A stretch of DNA of 20,998 nt from a virus. The notes under the pieces were generated by a model that was given only the letters and a program-made list of their open reading frames with translations, had not been told where the DNA came from and ran no database searches. The translations under genes were made by a program, and so were the position numbers. This document shows, piece after piece, positions 4,567 through 17,863 of the stretch. The stretch is from positions 1-20,998 of IMG/VR virus record IMGVR_UViG_3300048837_001626, one strand, 5' to 3'. The first letter of the stretch is position 1. The number at the start of each line of letters is the position of its first letter.

Positions 4567-6042
4567 TCACAGCAGGAACTGGATCTGCGCCGCCATGACG
4601 CGGAACTGGTTCACCAGGTCGGGCGGCAGCAGCGCGTCCACGCGGTTCGGGTCGTTCGGGTTCCGCATGACGATGAGGTCGCGCTTGAACTGCTCGACGC
4701 CTTCGACCAGCCCCGCTGCCTCCCACTGGACGAAGCGGGCGATGATCTCGGCGCGGATGGTGCCGGGCGTGACCACGTTCTGGCCGCGCGCGAAGCGCGT
4801 GCCGTCATCCGCAAGCTTGTGGCGCGGGAAGCGCGTGGCGATCAGCTGCCGCAGGTCCCAGCGCAGGAACGCGACCGTCTTCAGCGTCTCGACGTCCACG
4901 TAGCTCGGATCCTCGGCGCCCGAGGGCGCCAGGCGATAGGTCGTCACGGCGCGCTCGATCGTGACCTGGTCGGCGGCATTGGCGCGCCAGGTGGCAAGGC
5001 CGACGCGCAGCAGCTGGTCGCGCTCGACCCAGGTGAACCGGGACGACAGCGCCGGCGGGACCACGCCGGGCAGCGCCAGCGTCTGCACCGGCCGGGCCGG
5101 ATCGGTCGCCAGCGCCGGGATCGCCGCCCCCGCGAAGGTGGCGGCCAGCTGCCACGGGGGCGTCGGCATGGCGCGGCTGCCGACCACGGTCACATGCGGG
5201 CTGTTGCGGGCTGCGCCGAAGGTCGTCAGATCGCCGAAGCTCCCGGTGCGGCCCAGCCATGCGTGGGTGTCCCGCATGGCGAGCGGCCCGAAATTGGCTG
5301 CCAGCCTGGCCTCCAGCGCGCTGATGCTCAGGTCGTCGCTGTGCGATGTCACGATATCGGTGAACCAGGTCTCGCCGAGCGCATCCAGGGCGACGTTCAT
5401 GCCCGGATTGGTCGCGCCACTGACGGTCTGGGCGATGACCGCGGTGCTGCCGGCCGGCAGCGCCTCGCCAGCACGCATGTTCAGCCGGATATCAAGCGCG
5501 TTCATCGAGCTGCCGCCGTTGTTGGCCGTCAGTGTCAGCACCTGCGCGGCGGACGCGGCGCTTACCGGCAGGTCGGGATCGGCCAGGATGGCGTTGCGCA
5601 ACAGCGTCGCCTGGGCGTTCTGGGCCGTGTTGTTCGGGATCGGCGCCACGACACGCCGGCCGCCGATGTACAGCACGATCTCACCTGCCGCAGTCGTGGT
5701 GCCTGCGAAGGAGATCGTCCAGGTCGCAGCGGTTGATCCGGGATCGTCGGCGAGGGACAGGCCCCAGACCTCGGTGGGCGGGCCGGCGGCGAACCAGGCT
5801 TCGAACATCTGGGTAATCAGGCAGCCGCGGCCGAAGAAGTTCCGGGCCTCCTGCACGCTGGTCACGCGCACCGGAACGGCACCCGGCACGCTGCCCTGCC
5901 CCGGGCGCCGCTGGCCGATCAGGACCACGCGCGCCGGCCAGGTGCTGAGCCCCCGCACCGCGCGGCTGTTGTCGATCTCGATGTAGGTCCCCGGCACGCG
6001 GACGCTGCCGGGGATCCCGTTGAAGCTGATGCTGGCGGACAT
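4567..6042 (-). CDS. Contractile tail sheath protein (Mu gpL-like)
   Basis: The 491-residue protein begins MSASISFNGIPGSVRVPGTY and contains VVLIGQRRPGQGSVPGAVPVR and the family-typical C-terminal region. That region includes ATRFPRHKLADDGTRFARGQ, VVTPGTIRAEIIARF and NPNDPNRVDALLPPDLVNQF. This is the Mu gpL sheath family at normal length. It forms the outer contractile cylinder that drives DNA injection, and its presence marks the phage as myovirus-type. The ATG at 6042 follows a GGAG motif, with the DUF2635 gene ending six bases earlier. Confidence 0.93.
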   Translation of the reverse strand: MSASISFNGIPGSVRVPGTYIEIDNSRAVRGLSTWPARVVLIGQRRPGQGSVPGAVPVRVTSVQEARNFFGRGCLITQMFEAWFAAGPPTEVWGLSLADDPGSTAATWTISFAGTTTAAGEIVLYIGGRRVVAPIPNNTAQNAQATLLRNAILADPDLPVSAASAAQVLTLTANNGGSSMNALDIRLNMRAGEALPAGSTAVIAQTVSGATNPGMNVALDALGETWFTDIVTSHSDDLSISALEARLAANFGPLAMRDTHAWLGRTGSFGDLTTFGAARNSPHVTVVGSRAMPTPPWQLAATFAGAAIPALATDPARPVQTLALPGVVPPALSSRFTWVERDQLLRVGLATWRANAADQVTIERAVTTYRLAPSGAEDPSYVDVETLKTVAFLRWDLRQLIATRFPRHKLADDGTRFARGQNVVTPGTIRAEIIARFVQWEAAGLVEGVEQFKRDLIVMRNPNDPNRVDALLPPDLVNQFRVMAAQIQFLL

Positions 6043-6048
6043 CCGCGA

Positions 6049-6255
6049 CTACTCCTGCTGCGCCGGGTCGGCGGGGGGGGAAGCCGGCTCGGGCTCGGCG
6101 GGCGGGTCGGCCACCACGACGTCGCCCTGCGCCACGCGGCGGCGCCAGTAGTCGTCGTCCGGCACCTCCGCCCCGGCCGGCGGCAACCACATGGCCGCCG
6201 CCGGCGCATCCGGCATCGGGATCATCAGCCCATCCAGGGCGGGGCGGACGAACAT
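6049..6255 (-). CDS. DUF2635 small phage protein (Mu gp38-like)
   Basis: The 68-residue protein reads MFVRPALDGLMIPMP, then LPPAGAEVPDDDYWRRRVAQGDVVV, followed by an acidic Pro-rich tail. This matches the DUF2635 / Mu gp38 pattern, including the WRRR...GDV core. Its function is unknown; in Mu-like phages it lies immediately before the sheath, as here. The ATG at 6255 is chosen because AGGAG lies six bases upstream. An earlier ATG at 6273 overlaps the preceding stop (ATGA) but has no Shine-Dalgarno sequence and would add six residues not seen in the family. Confidence 0.78.
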   Translation of the reverse strand: MFVRPALDGLMIPMPDAPAAAMWLPPAGAEVPDDDYWRRRVAQGDVVVADPPAEPEPASPPADPAQQE

Positions 6256-6269
6256 GCGGCTCTCCTGGG

Positions 6270-8117
6270 TCATGGCACCGCGAAGGCGGTGCCGGCGGCG
6301 GCGATGCGCCGTGCTGTCGCGGTGAAGCGGGCATCCGCGCTGACGCCCTCGGGCGCGGTGCCGTCGCCCTGGAAGCCGAAATGCACTTCCAGATACGCAC
6401 CCGGGCCGAAGGGGCGCAGCTGCACCGGCGGCGTGCGGATCACGAAGCGCCAGGGCTGCGACCACACCGGCTGGAAGCCCGCATTCGCCGCCGCGCCGGA
6501 CTGCCATTCGAAGCGCAGAGGCCCGCCGCCGCCGTTGAACTCGACCAGGCCGGCATAGATGCCGCCCAGGTTGACGGCGCCCGCTTCCAGCTCCGCCTCG
6601 ATCACGGCTTCCACGATATCGCCGGCGGCCAGCCCCGCCTCGGCCGTTGCGAAGCGGTGGAACAGGCCGGCGCGGTAGATCTGCAGCCCGTCGCGCACGC
6701 CGACCAGCGTCAGCCGCTGCCATTCGCCGCCTGCCGGGCGCGGCGCCTTCGACGCCACCTTGGTGCCGGCCGTCTCCCCGAGCGTGTTGCGATAGGGCTG
6801 CAGGCCGCCGGCCGCGAAGCCCGTCCAGCCTTGCGTCGCCACCGCGCCGCTGCCGGCGTTCAGCGCGTTCGCGACCAGGCCCGTGTCGCCCGGGCGCGGG
6901 ATTTCCGCGCCGCCGCGAACCCGCGGCGCGAAATAGTCCCGGATCCCCTGCGCCATCAGGAACGCGCCGCGCGCGCCGGGGTGGGTCACGTCGAACACCA
7001 CGCCGGGCAGCGGCAGGCCGGTGACCGGATCGGTGGTCAGCGGCGACCAGTCGATCCAGTCCACCCGCCCCTCGGCCGCGAAGTCGCGCCACATCTGGTC
7101 CAGCGCATCGCGCGCCGCGAGCTGCGCCGCGCTGAAGCTGCTCTTCGCCAGGATGTGCCCGGCAAAGCAGCGCATGCCCAGCGCCGCGGCGGTGTCGAGG
7201 ATCTGCGATGCGGCGCTGCGGCTGGCGGCGATCGGCGTCTGGGCGGTGGCGTCGTTGTGCCCCAGGCTCAGCAGCCCCAGGTAGCGCGGCCGCGGCTGCA
7301 AAGCGCCCAGCGCGCCCAGGCGCAGCGCGACATCCGCCAGGCGCTCGCCGGATACGCCCAGCTGGTGGGTCCGCCGGATGCGCAGCGCCCCGTCCAGCAT
7401 CTGGCCCGCCCAGTGGACAGGCCCGCGATAATCGAAGCGCTGCAGCACCCCGCCGCCGCCGCCGGCGACGTAGCTGTCGCCCAGCAACGCGACGTCCACC
7501 GGCGCGACGGCGCGGCCATCGTCGGGCTCGGCCTGCGGCAGGACGACACGGTCGGACGCGTTGCGATAGACATGCGGCACCGGCGGCGGGGCGGGCACGT
7601 CGCCATGCGGCGGGATGTCCCAGGCCGCGTCGAAGGTGACGAAGGGCGCCAGCACATCGGGATCCACGCCCTGGGGGAATTCCAGCGGCACCTCGGCCAC
7701 CAGGGCGTAGACGATGCGGCCGAGCTTCTCGAACGCATCGGCCTGCAGCTGCTCGGCGCTGGTGATCTCGACCTGGCCGGCGGCCACCGCGGGCGACCAG
7801 CCGCCGAGCGCGGCGATCGCCACCTGCACCATCTCGTAGGCGCCGATGGTGGCGGCATCGCCGCGCCGGCGCGCGCGCTCCCCGGCGGCGTTGCCGGCCA
7901 GCAGGTAGATGCCGAACTGGGCGCGCCAGACACCTTCCGGCCGCTCCGCGCGGGACATGCCGAGGAACGCGACATAGGCGCCGGGCGCCATCGTCAGGAT
8001 GCGGGAGAGTTCCTCGGCCGTCAGGCGGTCGGGCTTGTGGTCCACCTCCTTCACGCGGCTGCCGAAGGCGTCGGCCAGCTGCGCGACGAGGGCGTCCTCC
8101 ATCTGCGAGATGATCAT
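6270..8117 (-). CDS. Mu gp37-like (DUF1834) domain fused to an SGNH/GDSL hydrolase and a C-terminal beta-rich region
   Basis: This is a 615-residue protein. Residues 1-195 match Mu gp37 (DUF1834): GAYVAFLGMSRAE, then VWRAQFGIYLLAGN, AYEMVQVAIAALGGW and a WDIPPHG end. In Mu this gene product is the proposed tail terminator. From about 206 a second domain begins with the hallmarks of SGNH hydrolases: LLGDSY (nucleophile Ser215), Gly at GVSGER (about 254), GHND (286-289), and DVTHP giving Asp376 and His379. The remaining residues (about 405-615) look beta-rich and may bind carbohydrate. The frame is continuous, with ATGA overlaps at both ends. Such hydrolases deacetylate or de-esterify cell-surface polysaccharides or peptidoglycan, but the substrate here is unknown. 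Fusion to a neck or terminator protein is unexpected, because such enzymes normally sit on tail fibres. A lost stop codon or domain capture could explain it. Confidence 0.8.
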   Translation of the reverse strand: MIISQMEDALVAQLADAFGSRVKEVDHKPDRLTAEELSRILTMAPGAYVAFLGMSRAERPEGVWRAQFGIYLLAGNAAGERARRRGDAATIGAYEMVQVAIAALGGWSPAVAAGQVEITSAEQLQADAFEKLGRIVYALVAEVPLEFPQGVDPDVLAPFVTFDAAWDIPPHGDVPAPPPVPHVYRNASDRVVLPQAEPDDGRAVAPVDVALLGDSYVAGGGGGVLQRFDYRGPVHWAGQMLDGALRIRRTHQLGVSGERLADVALRLGALGALQPRPRYLGLLSLGHNDATAQTPIAASRSAASQILDTAAALGMRCFAGHILAKSSFSAAQLAARDALDQMWRDFAAEGRVDWIDWSPLTTDPVTGLPLPGVVFDVTHPGARGAFLMAQGIRDYFAPRVRGGAEIPRPGDTGLVANALNAGSGAVATQGWTGFAAGGLQPYRNTLGETAGTKVASKAPRPAGGEWQRLTLVGVRDGLQIYRAGLFHRFATAEAGLAAGDIVEAVIEAELEAGAVNLGGIYAGLVEFNGGGGPLRFEWQSGAAANAGFQPVWSQPWRFVIRTPPVQLRPFGPGAYLEVHFGFQGDGTAPEGVSADARFTATARRIAAAGTAFAVP

Positions 8118-8566
8118 CCGCGCCAGCCGGATCGGTAATGGCCGAGGTCGCCGGCGGTGACGTTGCGGGGCTCCCCCTTCGCCACCACCACGCCACCGCC
8201 GTCCTCGGCAGGCTCGGCGCCAGCGGCGTCGAGGCCGAGATCCGCCTTGCCCATCGCCACGTCGCGCAGGAAGGCGATGGCGTGGTCGCGTTCCTTGGTG
8301 ACCTGCTCCGTGGGCTGGCGATCGCCGCCCAGATAGAGGTCGTAGCGGGCGATGGCGGCCGACAGCCGCACCAGCAGGCGCGGCGTGGCGGACAGCGGCA
8401 GGGTGTGCCGCTTGGCGATGTAGCCATCCGCCATGTCCCCGGCGTCGTCGCAGGCCCGCTGCACCTTCGCCTGGTCCGGCTGGCCGTGCGGGCCTGGCGC
8501 GAGCTGGAACAGCTCCTCCAGGCCGTAGCGGCTCAGCAGGTCTTCGGGGGTGCAGTAGGCCGGCAT
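8114..8566 (-). CDS. DUF1320 head-tail joining protein (Mu gp36-like)
   Basis: The 150-residue protein begins MPAYCTPEDLLSRYGLEELFQL and contains ACDDAGDMADGYIAKRHTLPL, then RLLVRLSAAIARYDLYL, ending with LGHYRSGWRG. This is the DUF1320 / Mu gp36 pattern at normal length. It is a head-tail connector component by position. The start is the ATG at 8566; the frame is open further upstream but that part overlaps the previous gene. Its stop overlaps the ATG of the gp37-hydrolase fusion (ATGA). Confidence 0.88.
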   Translation of the reverse strand: MPAYCTPEDLLSRYGLEELFQLAPGPHGQPDQAKVQRACDDAGDMADGYIAKRHTLPLSATPRLLVRLSAAIARYDLYLGGDRQPTEQVTKERDHAIAFLRDVAMGKADLGLDAAGAEPAEDGGGVVVAKGEPRNVTAGDLGHYRSGWRG

Positions 8567-8576
8567 GAGAGGGCTC

Positions 8577-8852
8577 TCAGCGCGCCCTGCGGCGTGGCTT
8601 GTCGCCCTCCACCGCGGCGGTGTCGGCGCCCTCGCCGTCGTCCCCAGCGGCACCGGCGGCGTCGGCGCCGGTGGCGCCCCCAACACCACCGGCGCCCTCC
8701 GCCGCAGCGGGCTCGGCCTCGCCGAGATCCTCGACCAGGCCACGCGCGCCGAGCAGCAGCTTCGCCTCGACGGCGTCCACCACCAGCTCCGTGCCGGAGG
8801 GCAGCGCGCCCTCCGGCATGGTGAGATCGGCCAGCAGCCGGACCTTGCGCAT
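8577..8852 (-). CDS. Small phage head protein, acidic C-terminus (unrecognised)
   Basis: The 91-residue protein starts MRKVRLLADLTMPEGALPSGT. It has a compact N-terminal part (residues 1-45) like many short head-module proteins that begin with a KVxLL motif and contain an 'EAKLLLGAR' helix. An Ala/Gly/Asp/Glu low-complexity stretch and a basic end follow. The start overlaps the capsid stop by one base (TGATG), indicating coupled translation. No function can be assigned; a connector or capsid accessory role is suggested only by position. Confidence 0.7.
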   Translation of the reverse strand: MRKVRLLADLTMPEGALPSGTELVVDAVEAKLLLGARGLVEDLGEAEPAAAEGAGGVGGATGADAAGAAGDDGEGADTAAVEGDKPRRRAR

Positions 8853-9804: not shown

Positions 9805-10218
9805 TCAGCGGCGCAGCAGGATCTCGACGAACTGGCCGGCGGCGGTCGCCGCCTGCAGCACGTCTCCCACCGCGAAGATCGGCGTATCGGCGCCGGTGAT
9901 GATCGCGCCGTTGGCCGCGGTGGAGGTCACCTGAGTGCCGCCGGCGTTCAGGCTGATCATGGCGCCCACGATGACGCGCCCCTGGACGTCCACGGCGACG
10001 GTGTTGCCGATGGCGAGCGCGGCGCCGCTCTCGCAGATCGCCGTGCCGCAGACGGTCAGCGCGACTGCCTCGCCGGCGACGGCGTCGTGCTGGGCGATGC
10101 CCATGATCTTCTGGCCGACGGCATTGGCCTGCGCGCCGGCGAAGGTGACGCCGCGGCCGCGGCTGATCGGGCCGATGGCAGTCACCGACAGCGTCAGCAG
10201 GGATACATGCTGGGCCAT
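9805..10218 (-). CDS. DUF2190 family protein (probable capsid decoration protein)
   Basis: The 137-residue protein is beta-rich and glycine/alanine-rich, with GVTFAGAQANAVGQKIMG, AVAGEAVALTVCGTAICESGAALAIGN and VDVQGRVI repeats and a hydrophobic end (VGDVLQAATAAGQFVEILLRR). This is the DUF2190 pattern, whose members lie next to protease and capsid genes and are thought to stabilise the capsid surface. A strong Shine-Dalgarno GAGGAGG lies eight bases before the ATG at 10218. The gene lies 13 bases after the protease gene. Confidence 0.78.
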   Translation of the reverse strand: MAQHVSLLTLSVTAIGPISRGRGVTFAGAQANAVGQKIMGIAQHDAVAGEAVALTVCGTAICESGAALAIGNTVAVDVQGRVIVGAMISLNAGGTQVTSTAANGAIITGADTPIFAVGDVLQAATAAGQFVEILLRR

Positions 10219-10231
10219 TCGCGCCGCCTCC

Positions 10232-10744
10232 TCAGCCGGCCTTCTCGACCGCCAGCGCGGCGGTCACGTAGTCCACGGCCGGGTTGGCCTTCTGGTAGGC
10301 GAGCGCCTTGGCGTGCAGCGCCATGCGGTCCGGATCCACGGCGCGGCCCGCGAACTCCGCGGTCACCGGCGCGTCACCCGCGCCCGGCCCCTGGCCACCG
10401 GCCAGCTCGCGGAAGGCAACGGCGGCGGGCAGGCCCGACAGCATCTCGCGGAAGGCGACGACCTGCGGCTGCTTCACCGTCTTCGCGCCCGACCCGCTGC
10501 CGCGGCCATCCGGCTCGACGAAGGCGATCTCGACCTCGGCCGACAGCGTGCCCATGAAGGCGGCCACGCGCGGCGCCAGGCCCTGCGGCAGGCGGCCCTG
10601 CCGCACCAGGTCCTGCACGAAGGCGCGGTTGTCGGCATCGACCCGCTCCGCCTCGCGCTGGGCGAAGGCAGCCTCCCTCTCGGCGATCGCGCGCTCGCGC
10701 GACGCCAGCTCCTCGGCGCGTCGCGCCGCGTCCTCTTCGTTCAC
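10232..10744 (-). CDS. Nested scaffold protein (gpZ-like), internal in-frame start (predicted)
   Basis: Within the protease frame, a GTG at 10744 is preceded by AAGGA seven bases away, a far better ribosome-binding site than that of the full gene. It would make a 170-residue protein starting with a charged coiled coil (NEEDAARRAEELASRERAI then AEREAAFAQREAER), as expected for a scaffold. Mu makes scaffold gpZ from an internal start inside gene I in the same way. Independent expression is an inference from the site and the Mu precedent. Confidence 0.5.
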   Translation of the reverse strand: MNEEDAARRAEELASRERAIAEREAAFAQREAERVDADNRAFVQDLVRQGRLPQGLAPRVAAFMGTLSAEVEIAFVEPDGRGSGSGAKTVKQPQVVAFREMLSGLPAAVAFRELAGGQGPGAGDAPVTAEFAGRAVDPDRMALHAKALAYQKANPAVDYVTAALAVEKAG

Positions 10745-11263
10745 CGTGCGATCCTTGGCTTCGGGTGGGGTGGTGGCATTCGCGGCGACCGCGAACTCGA
10801 TACTGACGACGTGCGGCTCTTCGGCCACGCCGAACTCCAGCGTCACGACCTGGTCGTCGTCCGCCGCGAACTGGACGGGCTTCAAACCCTTCACCGCGGG
10901 CGCGGCCGCGCCGAGGAAGCCGACATGCTTCAGGTAGTAGGCGCCGGGCGAGGGGTTCTGCGGATGACGCGGCGTGTAGAGTGCGATGCTTACCTTCTTG
11001 AAGCGGCCGTCGCGAACCATGTCGGCGAATGCGGGCTCAACCTGGTGGGGCTCGGCGAACAGGCCATCCGGTTCGCTGGTGAGCGTCTTGACCCAGCCAT
11101 AGGCCGGCGCGTCTGTCGGCGGGTGACCCACCACGAGCGGCGCCTCCTCGCTTACCGTCGCGTAGGCGCGCGCCATCGCATCGAGGTCGGCCGCGCTGAA
11201 TTCCAGCGTGCCGCCGCGCATCGGGGTGTGCGCCCCCGCCCGGAACAGATGGATGCGTCGCAT
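10232..11263 (-). CDS. Phage prohead protease with C-terminal scaffold (Mu gpI-like)
   Basis: The 343-residue protein begins MRRIHLFRAGAHTPMRGGTLEF and contains APLVVGHPPTDAPAYGWVK, FKKVSIALYTP and a GAYYLKHVGFLGAAAPAVKGL segment. These are the signature regions of Mu-like gpI proteases (about residues 1-150). A linker and a coiled coil (about 174-210) lead to a scaffold-like C-terminus. It matures the head by cleaving scaffold and capsid proteins. I choose the ATG at 11263 because its N-terminus fits homologues and because the leader element has the same spacing to this ATG as at two other genes. A GTG at 11284 is the alternative. No Shine-Dalgarno sequence is visible for either start. Confidence 0.85.
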   Translation of the reverse strand: MRRIHLFRAGAHTPMRGGTLEFSAADLDAMARAYATVSEEAPLVVGHPPTDAPAYGWVKTLTSEPDGLFAEPHQVEPAFADMVRDGRFKKVSIALYTPRHPQNPSPGAYYLKHVGFLGAAAPAVKGLKPVQFAADDDQVVTLEFGVAEEPHVVSIEFAVAANATTPPEAKDRTVNEEDAARRAEELASRERAIAEREAAFAQREAERVDADNRAFVQDLVRQGRLPQGLAPRVAAFMGTLSAEVEIAFVEPDGRGSGSGAKTVKQPQVVAFREMLSGLPAAVAFRELAGGQGPGAGDAPVTAEFAGRAVDPDRMALHAKALAYQKANPAVDYVTAALAVEKAG

Positions 11264-11316
11264 GAGGCGCAGGATCGCGCGCACGCAGGGCCGGGTCGGT
11301 GCCCCACCAGAAGGGG
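11264..11316 (-). promoter_or_regulatory. Candidate late promoter / leader element upstream of the protease gene
   Basis: On the minus strand, CCCC-N7-GGGG (a degenerate dyad) leads into GGGGCACCGA, 17 bases, GCGATCCT (11271-11278), 7 bases and the ATG. Over the first 35 bases from GGGGC it matches the endolysin leader at 30 positions. Mu has its late promoter PI at the equivalent place. The rest of the 169-base gap (11317-11432) holds no gene I can support, only an AT-richer patch near the XRE gene end. Confidence 0.5.
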
Positions 11317-15247: not shown

Positions 15248-15991
15248 TCAGTCCTCGCCATGCGGGCCGCCCCACGGACCGGGCGCGGCCTGGGCCTGCA
15301 GGCGCGCCAGGCGCTCGCAGGCGACATCGAAGTAGCGTCGCTCCGCCTCGATCCCGATGCAGTCATGGCCAAGCTGCTGCGCCGCCACCAGCGTGCTGCC
15401 GCTGCCCATCCAGGGGTCGAGTATCAGCCCGGCCTGCGGGACGCGCGCTTCGCGGATGCACCAGCGCATGATCGCCACCGGCTTCTGGGTCGGGTGCACG
15501 CGCGGGCGGCCCGGGCCGATATCCTCGCGGCCTTCCTTGCCCACGCGGTAGCCATCCCACAGCAGCCGGTAGATCCGCATGGGGCGCTGCACCGGCCGCC
15601 TCGCGCGGCCACGGACCCGCCGCGGGAAGGGCCGATCGAGCACCAGCGCTGCCTCCCCGTCGCCCTGGCAGCGCCGGCTGCCATCCGGCCGCTTGTCCCA
15701 GACCAGCCAGGATCCGGGCGGAAGACGATCCGCGAAGCGGTGCGCACCCCACAGCAGGATGATGTCCGCCACCTGCAGCCAGGGCGCCGGATCGAAGGGA
15801 TGGTCGTCGCCCAGGATCGGCGGATACTCCTTCGAAGGCTGCCCCTTCACGCGCACGTTGGTCTTGAGCTTCTGGCCGTAGGGCGGATCGGCGATCACCG
15901 CGGCGGGGCGCGGCAGCGTGGGCGCGATCTCGCGGCAGTCGCCGAACCAGAGCGTGGCCCCGCCGATCTGCACGCATTCAGGCGCCGGCAT
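15248..15991 (-). CDS. DNA adenine/cytosine-N methyltransferase, beta-class (phage modification gene)
   Basis: The 247-residue protein has catalytic motif IV VIADPPYG near residues 32-39, an internal variable region with HPTQKPVAIMRW (about 166-177), and SAM-binding motif I LDPWMGSGST near 191-200. That order (IV before I) defines beta-class N6/N4 methyltransferases (N6_N4_Mtase family). The DPPY form favours N6-adenine. It probably protects phage DNA from host restriction or alters regulation. No partner endonuclease is present. The ATG at 15991 is chosen for the purine-rich site GGAAGGGGG before it; an ATG at 16039 is possible but would overlap the previous gene by 62 bases. Located between terL and portal, it is an added gene compared with Mu. 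Confidence 0.88.
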   Translation of the reverse strand: MPAPECVQIGGATLWFGDCREIAPTLPRPAAVIADPPYGQKLKTNVRVKGQPSKEYPPILGDDHPFDPAPWLQVADIILLWGAHRFADRLPPGSWLVWDKRPDGSRRCQGDGEAALVLDRPFPRRVRGRARRPVQRPMRIYRLLWDGYRVGKEGREDIGPGRPRVHPTQKPVAIMRWCIREARVPQAGLILDPWMGSGSTLVAAQQLGHDCIGIEAERRYFDVACERLARLQAQAAPGPWGGPHGED

Positions 15992-16235
15992 CTTCGCCCC
16001 CTTCCACCAGGTCCGCTTCGTAAGGCGCCGGCGAAACATGCCACCAGTGGTCCGCCGCCACGATCGCGGCGCAGCCGCGCGCCGCGTCGAGCAGGATCAA
16101 CTCGCCCTGGCTGCCGACCTCCAGCTCCGCCACGTCGGTCACGACCAGGTCGCCGGACGGGCCGAACACCACGTAGTCGCGCACCACGGTGTCGGTCTGG
16201 TTATGCTGCCCGATGTCCATCGTCGCCTCCGTCAT
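15978..16235 (-). CDS. Small accessory protein, unknown (85 residues)
   Basis: The protein begins MTEATMDIGQHNQTDT and contains a beta-rich centre (DLVVTDVAELEVGSQGELILLD) and a WWHVSPAPYEAD end. It is acidic with no cysteines or membrane segment. The ATG overlaps the terL stop (ATGA), and the 3' end overlaps the methyltransferase start by 14 bases, so it is co-translated with both. It could be a small virion or regulatory protein, but no family is recognised. Confidence 0.65.
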   Translation of the reverse strand: MTEATMDIGQHNQTDTVVRDYVVFGPSGDLVVTDVAELEVGSQGELILLDAARGCAAIVAADHWWHVSPAPYEADLVEGGEDAGA

Positions 16236-17863
16236 CCCAGGTAGTCCGCCACGCCCAAGCCCGCGCCAGAGCCGACGCCCACGAAGCCCGCGTACGGCGG
16301 TTCCGCCGGCCGAGACACCGGCGCGAAGCGCCCATCGCCCACGTCGCGGCCGGCGGCATAGATCGCCAGCGCGGCGGCGATCGCCGCGTCGCCATGGCGC
16401 TGCCCGCCCGCCTTGTCCTTCTCCTCGCCCTTCTCGACCTGGCGCTTGTCCGGCACGCGGGCCACGCCGCGCACCAGCTCGAGCTGGCGGAAGTCGTCCA
16501 CCACGCCGGCGTCAGCCGGGATGGTCAGGCCGCCATCTTCGAAGGCGGCCTTCAGCTTCGGCATGTGCGCGCGATACCAGGCCTCGGTCAGGTGGATGCC
16601 CTCGGCGCGGTGCGCGCCGTAGCGCTGCACGGTGACCTCGGCCAGGTAGGCGCCGTTGCCGGTGGCATCCAGCGCCACGCCCGACAGCCGCGGCAGACGG
16701 TCCAGCACGTAGTGCAGGATCTGCTTCTGCTGCTCGAAGGGCACGTTCCGCAGCTCGATCACGAAGGGCGCCCGCCGCACTAGGTCTTCCGACACCTGCA
16801 CCGGCCAGAAGACCGAGAGGTCGCCCACGCGGGCGAAGTCGCCGCCCAGCGCGTGGCGGAACAGGGGCGCCAGTGCGCGCAGCCGGGCGCCGACCTGGTC
16901 CTCGCACCAGGCCAGCACGTGCCGCTCCCGCGCGTGGTCGGGCAGGTGGACGAAGGCATCGTCGCAGCGCAGCCGCAGCACCGGCACGGTCCGGTCGGCG
17001 CGGGCCTCGATCAGGTGCAGCGGCAGGAACTTCCCCGATCCCGCGCGGGGGATCACGTCCAGCTCCTCGCCGGCGCCGTCGCCATAGAAGCCGCGGATCT
17101 CGTCGCGCCAGGCGGCCTCTGCCTCCGGCGTCCATTCGCGGCCGCGCACCAGGCAGATGCGCTGATACAGGCCGTCGCGCAGGGCGTCGTCGAACGTGGT
17201 GCGCAGCACGGCGCCGCGCTTGCGGCCCGCGCGGATGTCCTGGATCAGCTCGTTGAACGGGTTCTCCACGCCGTCATGGGTGGAGATCACCAGCACGCGC
17301 CCACCCCAGATCAGCAGCGCCAGCGCGGCCTTCAGCAGCTCCGCCAGCTGGTCGTGGAAGGCGGCCTCGTCGATCACCACGAAGCCCTGCCGGCCGCGCA
17401 GGCTTCGCGGGCGGGACGCCAGGGCGACGATCTCGAAGCCGGAGGCGAAGGCGATGCGGAAGGCGGCGATGTGCCGGTCCCCGCCATCCTTGTCCTGGTC
17501 GGCGAACAGGAACTCCGCCATCTCGCCGGCGGCCAGGCCAAGGGCCCGCGCCCACATGCCGCAGACGCCGATGAACTCCCGCGCCATGTCCAGGTTGTAG
17601 CCGATGTAGAGGCTGTCCATGCCGCCGGCGCTGCGCTGCGCGCCGCTGGTCAGCACGGCCTGCGCGCCCACGCCCCACGTCGCGCCGATGCGGCGGGACT
17701 TCTCGATGACCGTCAGCGCGTGCGCGCTGACCGTGGCCAGCAGCGCGCGCTGGTAGGGCAGCAGCACGCCGTCGGCCCCATTGGGCAGCGTGGGCATGGT
17801 CGCCACGGCGTCCTGCCGGTGGCGCGCCCAGTCCTCCGCGGTGATCGGGCCGGGATCGGTCAC
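16232..17863 (-). CDS. terL: Terminase large subunit (Mu gp28-like)
   Basis: The 543-residue packaging motor has an N-terminal ATPase with a Walker-A-like EKSRRIGATWG (54-64), Walker B FVVIDEAAF (161-169; Asp165, Glu166) and a coupling motif ISTHDG (193-198). The nuclease part has acidic residues in an RNase-H-like arrangement: GGDFARVGD (Asp342), VALDATGNG (Asp399) and HGDAAIAAALA (Asp492). It cuts and pumps phage DNA into the head; Mu-type terminases package from a pac-like site and accept flanking host DNA. The GTG start at 17863 overlaps the small-subunit stop (GTGA). All motifs are intact. Confidence 0.94.
   Translation of the reverse strand: MTDPGPITAEDWARHRQDAVATMPTLPNGADGVLLPYQRALLATVSAHALTVIEKSRRIGATWGVGAQAVLTSGAQRSAGGMDSLYIGYNLDMAREFIGVCGMWARALGLAAGEMAEFLFADQDKDGGDRHIAAFRIAFASGFEIVALASRPRSLRGRQGFVVIDEAAFHDQLAELLKAALALLIWGGRVLVISTHDGVENPFNELIQDIRAGRKRGAVLRTTFDDALRDGLYQRICLVRGREWTPEAEAAWRDEIRGFYGDGAGEELDVIPRAGSGKFLPLHLIEARADRTVPVLRLRCDDAFVHLPDHARERHVLAWCEDQVGARLRALAPLFRHALGGDFARVGDLSVFWPVQVSEDLVRRAPFVIELRNVPFEQQKQILHYVLDRLPRLSGVALDATGNGAYLAEVTVQRYGAHRAEGIHLTEAWYRAHMPKLKAAFEDGGLTIPADAGVVDDFRQLELVRGVARVPDKRQVEKGEEKDKAGGQRHGDAAIAAALAIYAAGRDVGDGRFAPVSRPAEPPYAGFVGVGSGAGLGVADYLG

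What the first reader, a model, noticed from the sequence alone, without database searches (positions are those of the whole stretch)
6270..8117. Tail-terminator-type gp37 protein fused to a complete SGNH hydrolase
One uninterrupted frame encodes a full Mu gp37-like domain (residues 1-195) and then a hydrolase with all diagnostic blocks (GDS at 213-215, GVSG near 254, GHND at 286-289, D-x-x-H at 376-379). A roughly 200-residue beta-rich region follows. gp37 homologues normally end where the second domain starts. Phage SGNH enzymes are usually on fibres or are separate proteins. Placing one on the neck/terminator ring would give the virion an enzyme at the head-tail junction, or indicates a cleaved two-part polyprotein. 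I know of no described example, though I cannot search.
Basis: partly seen in the sequence, partly recalled or inferred. Interest (0 to 1): 0.78.

Follow-up and report, generated by a model that had tools for sequence, protein, structure and literature searches.

The report
Esterase fused to phage tail terminator
In one small group of Mu-like phages, the protein ring that caps the tail just under the head has gained a complete sugar-trimming (SGNH esterase) module of the kind phages normally carry on their tail fibres, which would put six enzymes at the virus's neck.

Summary
Window 6270-8117, minus strand (the finding gave no strand), encodes one 615-aa frame. Residues 1-195 are a Mu gp37 tail terminator (Pfam E 9e-14; model matches Mu structures 9lj8/9khy at Z 17). 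Residues ~205-400 are an SGNH hydrolase with all catalytic blocks (Pfam E 1e-13; Z 13-14 to esterases). Residues ~400-615 are a beta-rich domain that travels with SGNH in standalone phage esterases. It is not an assembly error: two other IMG/VR contigs carry the same fusion. It is rare: 59 other gp37 loci lack it, the near relatives stopping where the SGNH begins here, and no fusion was seen in about 1,180 sampled bacterial genomes. On a gp37 tree the fused proteins form one clade among unfused ones. Against one contig, the SGNH part is the most diverged segment of the shared gene cluster, yet keeps its catalytic motifs. Best reading: a receptor-binding-type polysaccharide O-acetylesterase appended to the hexameric terminator ring, a neck-mounted glycan-modifying decoration. 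Location is strongly implied; activity and virion incorporation are inferred. Precedents: neck carbohydrate-binding modules of lactococcal phages and SGNH tail fibres; no enzyme on a tail terminator was found in the papers searched. New variant of a known kind.

The parts
7533..8117 (-). gp37-type tail terminator domain, residues 1-195, including the C-terminal segment that ends ...RNASDRVVLPQ
   Evidence: Pfam PF08873 E 8.9e-14; PHROG 490 E 2e-27; phmmer to Mu terminator 9khy E 1.7e-5; model residues 2-152 vs 9lj8 Z 17.3, 9khy Z 17.2, and other tail terminators
6918..7532 (-). SGNH/GDSL hydrolase domain with short linker, residues 196-400; predicted catalytic Ser215, Gly (GVSG 254-257), Asn288, Asp376/His379
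   Evidence: Pfam PF13472 E 1.1e-13; motif positions; fold matches PatB/acetylxylan esterase SGNH folds Z 13-14 and Z 11-12 in a separate model
6270..6917 (-). C-terminal beta-rich domain, residues 401-615, plus stop codon
   Evidence: PHROG 6102 match runs to residue 510; shares GGEWQ and R/ETP motifs with the MR18 SGNH protein and Ranch gp5; Foldseek BFVD matches span SGNH plus this domain in standalone phage esterases; no Pfam match
6049..6255 (-). gp38-like (DUF2635) gene directly downstream, in the same place as in unfused relatives
   Evidence: Pfam DUF2635 E 7.7e-12; sequence; synteny
8114..8743 (-). gp36 head-tail adaptor directly upstream; its stop overlaps the gp37 ATG (ATGA). The true start is probably internal, as relatives are about 149 aa
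   Evidence: Pfam Phage_Mu_Gp36 E 3.8e-32; sequence; relatives
4567..6042 (-). tail sheath gene (gp39-like), the expected contact of the gp37 C-terminal hairpin
   Evidence: PHROG 165 E 4e-165; Mu cryo-EM paper PMC11915804

Best explanation
The gene encodes the phage's tail terminator with a receptor-binding-type SGNH esterase module (catalytic SGNH domain plus beta-rich, probably glycan-binding, domain) added at its C-terminus. Six gp37 copies would form the ring that caps tube and sheath; the C-terminal hairpin contacts the last sheath ring; and the esterase pair hangs off the end of that hairpin. This gives the virion about six esterase units at the neck. They most likely remove O-acetyl groups from, and so bind and modify, host capsule, exopolysaccharide or LPS, helping adsorption or passage through an O-acetylated polysaccharide layer (or release from it after lysis). 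Shown here: the fusion, both folds, conservation of catalytic motifs, single clade, fast divergence of the esterase part. Inferred: ring assembly with the extra mass, surface exposure, activity, substrate and biological role.
For: Fused frame confirmed and found in two other contigs. Terminator fold Z 17 to the Mu hexameric terminator and SGNH fold Z 13-14 to carbohydrate and peptidoglycan esterases. Mu gp37 is a hexameric terminator whose C-terminal beta-hairpin interlaces with the last sheath ring and elongates on contraction (PMC11915804); this segment is kept, and the SGNH starts about 10 residues after it. The SGNH plus C-domain module matches standalone phage esterases and a PP99 tail spike, and an SGNH module occurs in a fibre-like 692-aa protein of an alphaproteobacterial contig. 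Against L002 the SGNH part is 51% identical while seven neighbouring head/neck proteins and the gp37 domain are 75-94%; dN/dS 0.92 versus 0.25 for gp37, which is RBP-like divergence or allele exchange with catalytic motifs kept. Purifying selection against L001 on all three parts (dN/dS 0.12, 0.34, 0.27). SGNH receptor-binding proteins are active esterases/deacetylases (PMC13123978; PMC9569702). Neck glycan-binding decorations exist in lactococcal phages (PMC6669499).
Against: No virion proteomics or activity data. Neck enzymes lie about a tail length from the baseplate, so benefit for adsorption is not obvious. Cleavage or non-virion use is not excluded. The C-terminal domain model is low confidence. 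The L001 relative also has a normal tail-fibre gene, so the neck module is not the only candidate receptor binder. dN/dS against L002 may reflect recombination rather than selection.
Confidence: 0.62

Rival explanations
1. Polyprotein: the chain is cut after residue ~195, freeing a soluble esterase that acts in the lysing cell or is packaged elsewhere.
For: A proline-rich, probably flexible segment (residues 169-183) lies before the end of the terminator part; Mu-like phages encode a head maturation protease, present here at 10232-11284, and Mu gp29 appears to be cut during head assembly (PMC11915804).
Against: No cleavage motif was identified; proline-rich linkers of the same kind are present in unfused relatives, where nothing follows; unfused phages show no separate SGNH gene at this place or in the records searched, so no split version of the gene pair was seen.
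Confidence: 0.13
2. The module is a non-catalytic or weakly catalytic glycan-binding decoration that mainly holds the virion to polysaccharide, like the carbohydrate-binding modules on the neck of lactococcal 936 phages.
For: Neck glycan-binding modules are a known kind, two of their classes resembling the CBM of carbohydrate esterases (PMC6669499); the C-terminal beta-rich domain may be a binding domain.
Against: All SGNH catalytic motifs are intact in the window and L001, and those covered are intact in L002, which argues for catalysis.
Confidence: 0.13
3. The SGNH part is a chance or degenerating insertion without a virion role in this clade.
For: Seen in only three contigs; high dN/dS against L002.
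Against: Open frame kept over 420 codons in two full-length copies with dN/dS 0.27-0.34 and conserved catalytic residues; downstream synteny kept.
Confidence: 0.05
4. Assembly chimera or frame error joining two genes.
For: Metagenome-derived virus record.
Against: The same junction is present in two other IMG/VR contigs with different contig names at 85% and 69% identity, with no stop or shift.
Confidence: 0.02

Closest known systems
Phage Mu gp37 tail terminator (PF08873; PDB 9khy, 9lj8)
   Same: Same fold (Z 17), same gene position between gp36 and gp38/sheath, same C-terminal extension
   Different: Mu gp37 ends there; the window protein carries 420 further residues
SGNH tail fibres/tail spikes (E. 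coli phage G7C gp63.1, Pectobacterium phage Possum gp66, Klebsiella prophage RBPs)
   Same: SGNH domain in a phage structural protein with an additional C-terminal domain; expected polysaccharide O-deacetylation
   Different: Those sit on fibres/spikes at the host-facing end; this one is on the terminator at the head end
Standalone phage esterases: Gordonia phage Ranch gp5, Pseudomonas phage MR18 gp53, Gordonia Clown/Lambo esterase
   Same: Same SGNH plus C-terminal domain module, including GGEWQ and R/ETP motifs
   Different: Separate genes, not fused to gp37
Neck passage structure (NPS) of lactococcal 936 and TP901-1 phages
   Same: Neck-located appendages ending in carbohydrate-binding (some carbohydrate-esterase-CBM-like) domains
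   Different: Separate BppU-based proteins of siphophages; not part of the terminator; no SGNH mentioned

Membership tests
Mu gp37 / tail terminator (PF08873) | Sequence match to the family above its cut-off | tested here: met
   E 8.9e-14, 52.3 bits versus cut-off 25
Mu gp37 / tail terminator (PF08873) | Terminator fold | tested here: met
   Z 17.3/17.2 to Mu 9lj8/9khy; also pyocin R2 collar, T5 p142, lambda gpU
Mu gp37 / tail terminator (PF08873) | Gene position between adaptor gp36 and gp38/sheath | tested here: met
Mu gp37 / tail terminator (PF08873) | Hexameric ring capping tube and sheath | not testable with these tools
   Inferred from Mu (PMC11915804)
SGNH/GDSL hydrolase | Four conserved blocks (GDS, G, GxND, DxxH) | tested here: met
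   Positions 213, 254, 286, 376
SGNH/GDSL hydrolase | SGNH fold | tested here: met
   Residues 201-402, Z 13-14 to PatB, GDSL lipases and acetylxylan esterases
SGNH/GDSL hydrolase | Esterase activity | not testable with these tools
   Needs expression and assay
Neck passage structure (lactococcal) | BppU-like N-terminal domain and trimeric coiled coil | not tested
   No such match appeared in the Pfam/PHROG scans of this protein; resemblance is in location and role only

The most novel reading that the evidence does not exclude
A phage tail terminator that is itself an enzyme: a hexameric neck ring bearing six active polysaccharide O-acetylesterases, whose anchoring hairpin changes conformation when the sheath contracts, so that the esterases move or become exposed upon tail contraction.
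Probability: 0.45. Interest if true: 0.68.

Novelty: new variant of a known kind. Interest (0 to 1): 0.5.

Why it matters
Phage glycan-modifying enzymes are known from fibres, spikes and baseplates, and neck decorations so far are described as binding modules. An esterase carried by the terminator ring would show that a conserved assembly protein can accept a ~45-kDa catalytic module, would add the neck as a site for polysaccharide-modifying enzymes in contractile phages, and offers a natural attachment point for displaying cargo on Mu-type tails. Near relatives with and without the module give a natural comparison.

Tried and rejected
Sequencing/assembly error: rejected by two other contigs. 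Separate start codon for the SGNH part: a GTG lies at codon 207 but no Shine-Dalgarno is visible upstream (sequence); not pursued. Hosts: the first genome-contig scan found nothing and the second found only unfused gp37 in Roseomonas MAGs; 397 Acetobacteraceae genomes gave 6 matches, none fused. Plasmids: none. Phage records: only weak SGNH hits and no gp37 hit. PF08873 in 385 class-level and 398 phylum-level genomes: open frames 148-261 aa only. A search with MR18 RBP in viral contigs found nothing. C-terminal domain fold: model confidence too low, no Pfam family, and the structural match list does not cover it, so its fold is left open. Paper searches for terminator plus esterase, SGNH, carbohydrate-binding or Ig-like terms gave no example of an enzyme on a tail terminator; subscription papers are not held.

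Full report
What is there. The window is a virus record of 20,998 bases holding the late genes of a Mu-like contractile phage on the minus strand: Mor-like regulator, endolysin, DUF2730, gp27, gp28-like terminase, a DNA methylase, portal, gp30, gpG-like, protease, cement, major capsid, gp36, the finding, gp38, sheath, tube, tape measure, gp43 and gp44 (the terminase label for 16232-17863 rests on gene order, as it has no Pfam match). The finding is an uninterrupted 615-codon gene at 6270-8117, minus strand. Its ATG overlaps the gp36 stop (ATGA), and gp38 follows at 6255-6049 after a Shine-Dalgarno-like AGGAG.

Domains. Residues 3-102 match Phage_Mu_Gp37 (E 8.9e-14) and 212-384 match Lipase_GDSL_2 (E 1.1e-13), both over the curated cut-off. 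PHROG 490 covers 2-175 and PHROG 6102 'lipase' covers 197-510. GDS, GVSG, GHND and DVTH lie at 213, 254, 286 and 376. An AlphaFold2 model from six sequences has mean pLDDT 50, about 70 in the terminator part and 65 in the SGNH part. Even so, residues 2-152 match the Mu tail terminator at Z 17.3 (9lj8) and 17.2 (9khy), well above other terminators (pyocin R2 collar 13.3, T5 13.3, lambda gpU 12.2), and residues 201-402 match SGNH hydrolases at Z 13-14. A separate model of residues 193-615 again gives SGNH (Z up to 12.4) and, against viral models, matches standalone phage esterases over nearly its whole length, with high rmsd as expected for a low-confidence two-domain model.

Is it real and how rare is it. 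The same fusion is in L001 (85% identical over all 615 residues) and L002 (69% up to residue 320, where the contig ends). Two pattern scans of viral contigs and one of genome contigs with gp37 alignments returned 34 gp37 loci of the window's wider family; L001 and L002 are fused and the other 32 stop after 174-216 residues, nearly all just after the same ...VTLP-like segment that in the window precedes the SGNH domain. Another 27 Mu-type gp37 loci of gammaproteobacterial type are all 216-221 aa. Searches of 397, 385 and 398 sampled genomes (about 1,180, with slight overlap; stated loosely because the tool draws samples) showed gp37 matches with open frames of at most 261 aa apart from weak or out-of-frame cases (335 and 350 aa) that on reading proved to be upstream frame extension and not SGNH. 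On a gp37 tree of 21 proteins the three fused proteins form one branch (support 100/98) beside unfused ones (L013, L005, L004); one gain of the module is the simplest history.

Where the module comes from. The two-domain unit (SGNH plus ~200 beta-rich residues) aligns end to end with Pseudomonas phage MR18 gp53 (463 aa) and Gordonia phage Ranch gp5 (409 aa), sharing GGEWQ- and R/ETP-type motifs in the C-terminal domain. A 692-aa fibre-like protein of an alphaproteobacterial contig and a chromosomal protein next to a sugar-nucleotide gene also carry SGNH plus extra C-terminal sequence.

How it evolves. Against L001 all three parts are under purifying selection (dN/dS 0.12, 0.34, 0.27). Against L002 the gp37 part is 81-86% identical and the neighbouring proteins 75-94%, but the SGNH part is only about 50% identical with dN/dS near 0.9; dS is also higher there, so allele exchange by recombination is as good a reading as diversifying selection. 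Either is typical of glycan-specific host-recognition modules and not of a neutral tag; catalytic motifs are kept.

How it probably works. Mu gp37 is a hexamer capping tube and sheath; its C-terminal beta-hairpin interlaces with domain I of the last sheath ring and elongates on contraction (PMC11915804). The window protein keeps this segment and adds the esterase about 10 residues later, so six esterases should lie outside the sheath at the neck. SGNH receptor-binding proteins of other phages are esterases that deacetylate capsule or O-antigen (PMC13123978; PMC9569702). A neck esterase could act in thick O-acetylated exopolysaccharide surrounding the whole virion during adsorption, or free progeny from it after lysis; which of these applies is inference. 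The L001 relative also has an ordinary tail-fibre gene downstream of the baseplate genes, and no other SGNH was found in the fused phages' records, so the neck module is an addition, not an evident replacement.

Compared with what is known. It is a member of the gp37 terminator family and of the SGNH superfamily by sequence and fold. Neck appendages with carbohydrate-binding ends, two classes resembling the CBM of carbohydrate esterases, are known in lactococcal siphophages as separate NPS proteins (PMC6669499). No enzyme on a tail terminator was found in the open-access papers searched. This is a new variant of a known kind: a fibre-type esterase on a new virion position.

Limits. No protein or activity evidence exists; the C-terminal fold is open; the host is unknown (nearest unfused gp37 genes are in Roseomonas MAGs); only three fused examples are at hand, one truncated.

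Noticed in passing
window 6270-8117; PHROG 490 and 209: PHROG 490 and 209 are labelled 'portal protein', but the matching domain has the Mu tail-terminator fold (Z 17), so the label looks wrong.
   Followed up: yes
window 15248-16039, minus strand: A DNA N6/N4 methylase gene (PF01555, E 6.7e-18) lies inside the late head-gene cluster, between the terminase-like gene and the portal; probably protection against restriction.
   Followed up: partly
window 9805-10218: A cement-protein gene (PF09956, E 2e-7) lies next to the major capsid gene; the PHROG match instead says head scaffolding.
   Followed up: no
L060 4749-8674 (L001 relative): Downstream of the baseplate genes lie a tail-fibre protein and a 513-aa protein without PHROG match, built of repeated 'xxAxxGQLxAxxSHxRPGWS'-like units after an N-terminal LamG-like-looking segment.
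   Followed up: no
L083 8579-9925: A chromosomal SGNH protein of an alphaproteobacterium with the PHROG 6102 match over almost its full length sits next to a mannose-1-phosphate guanylyltransferase-like gene, suggesting a polysaccharide locus as a source of such modules.
   Followed up: partly
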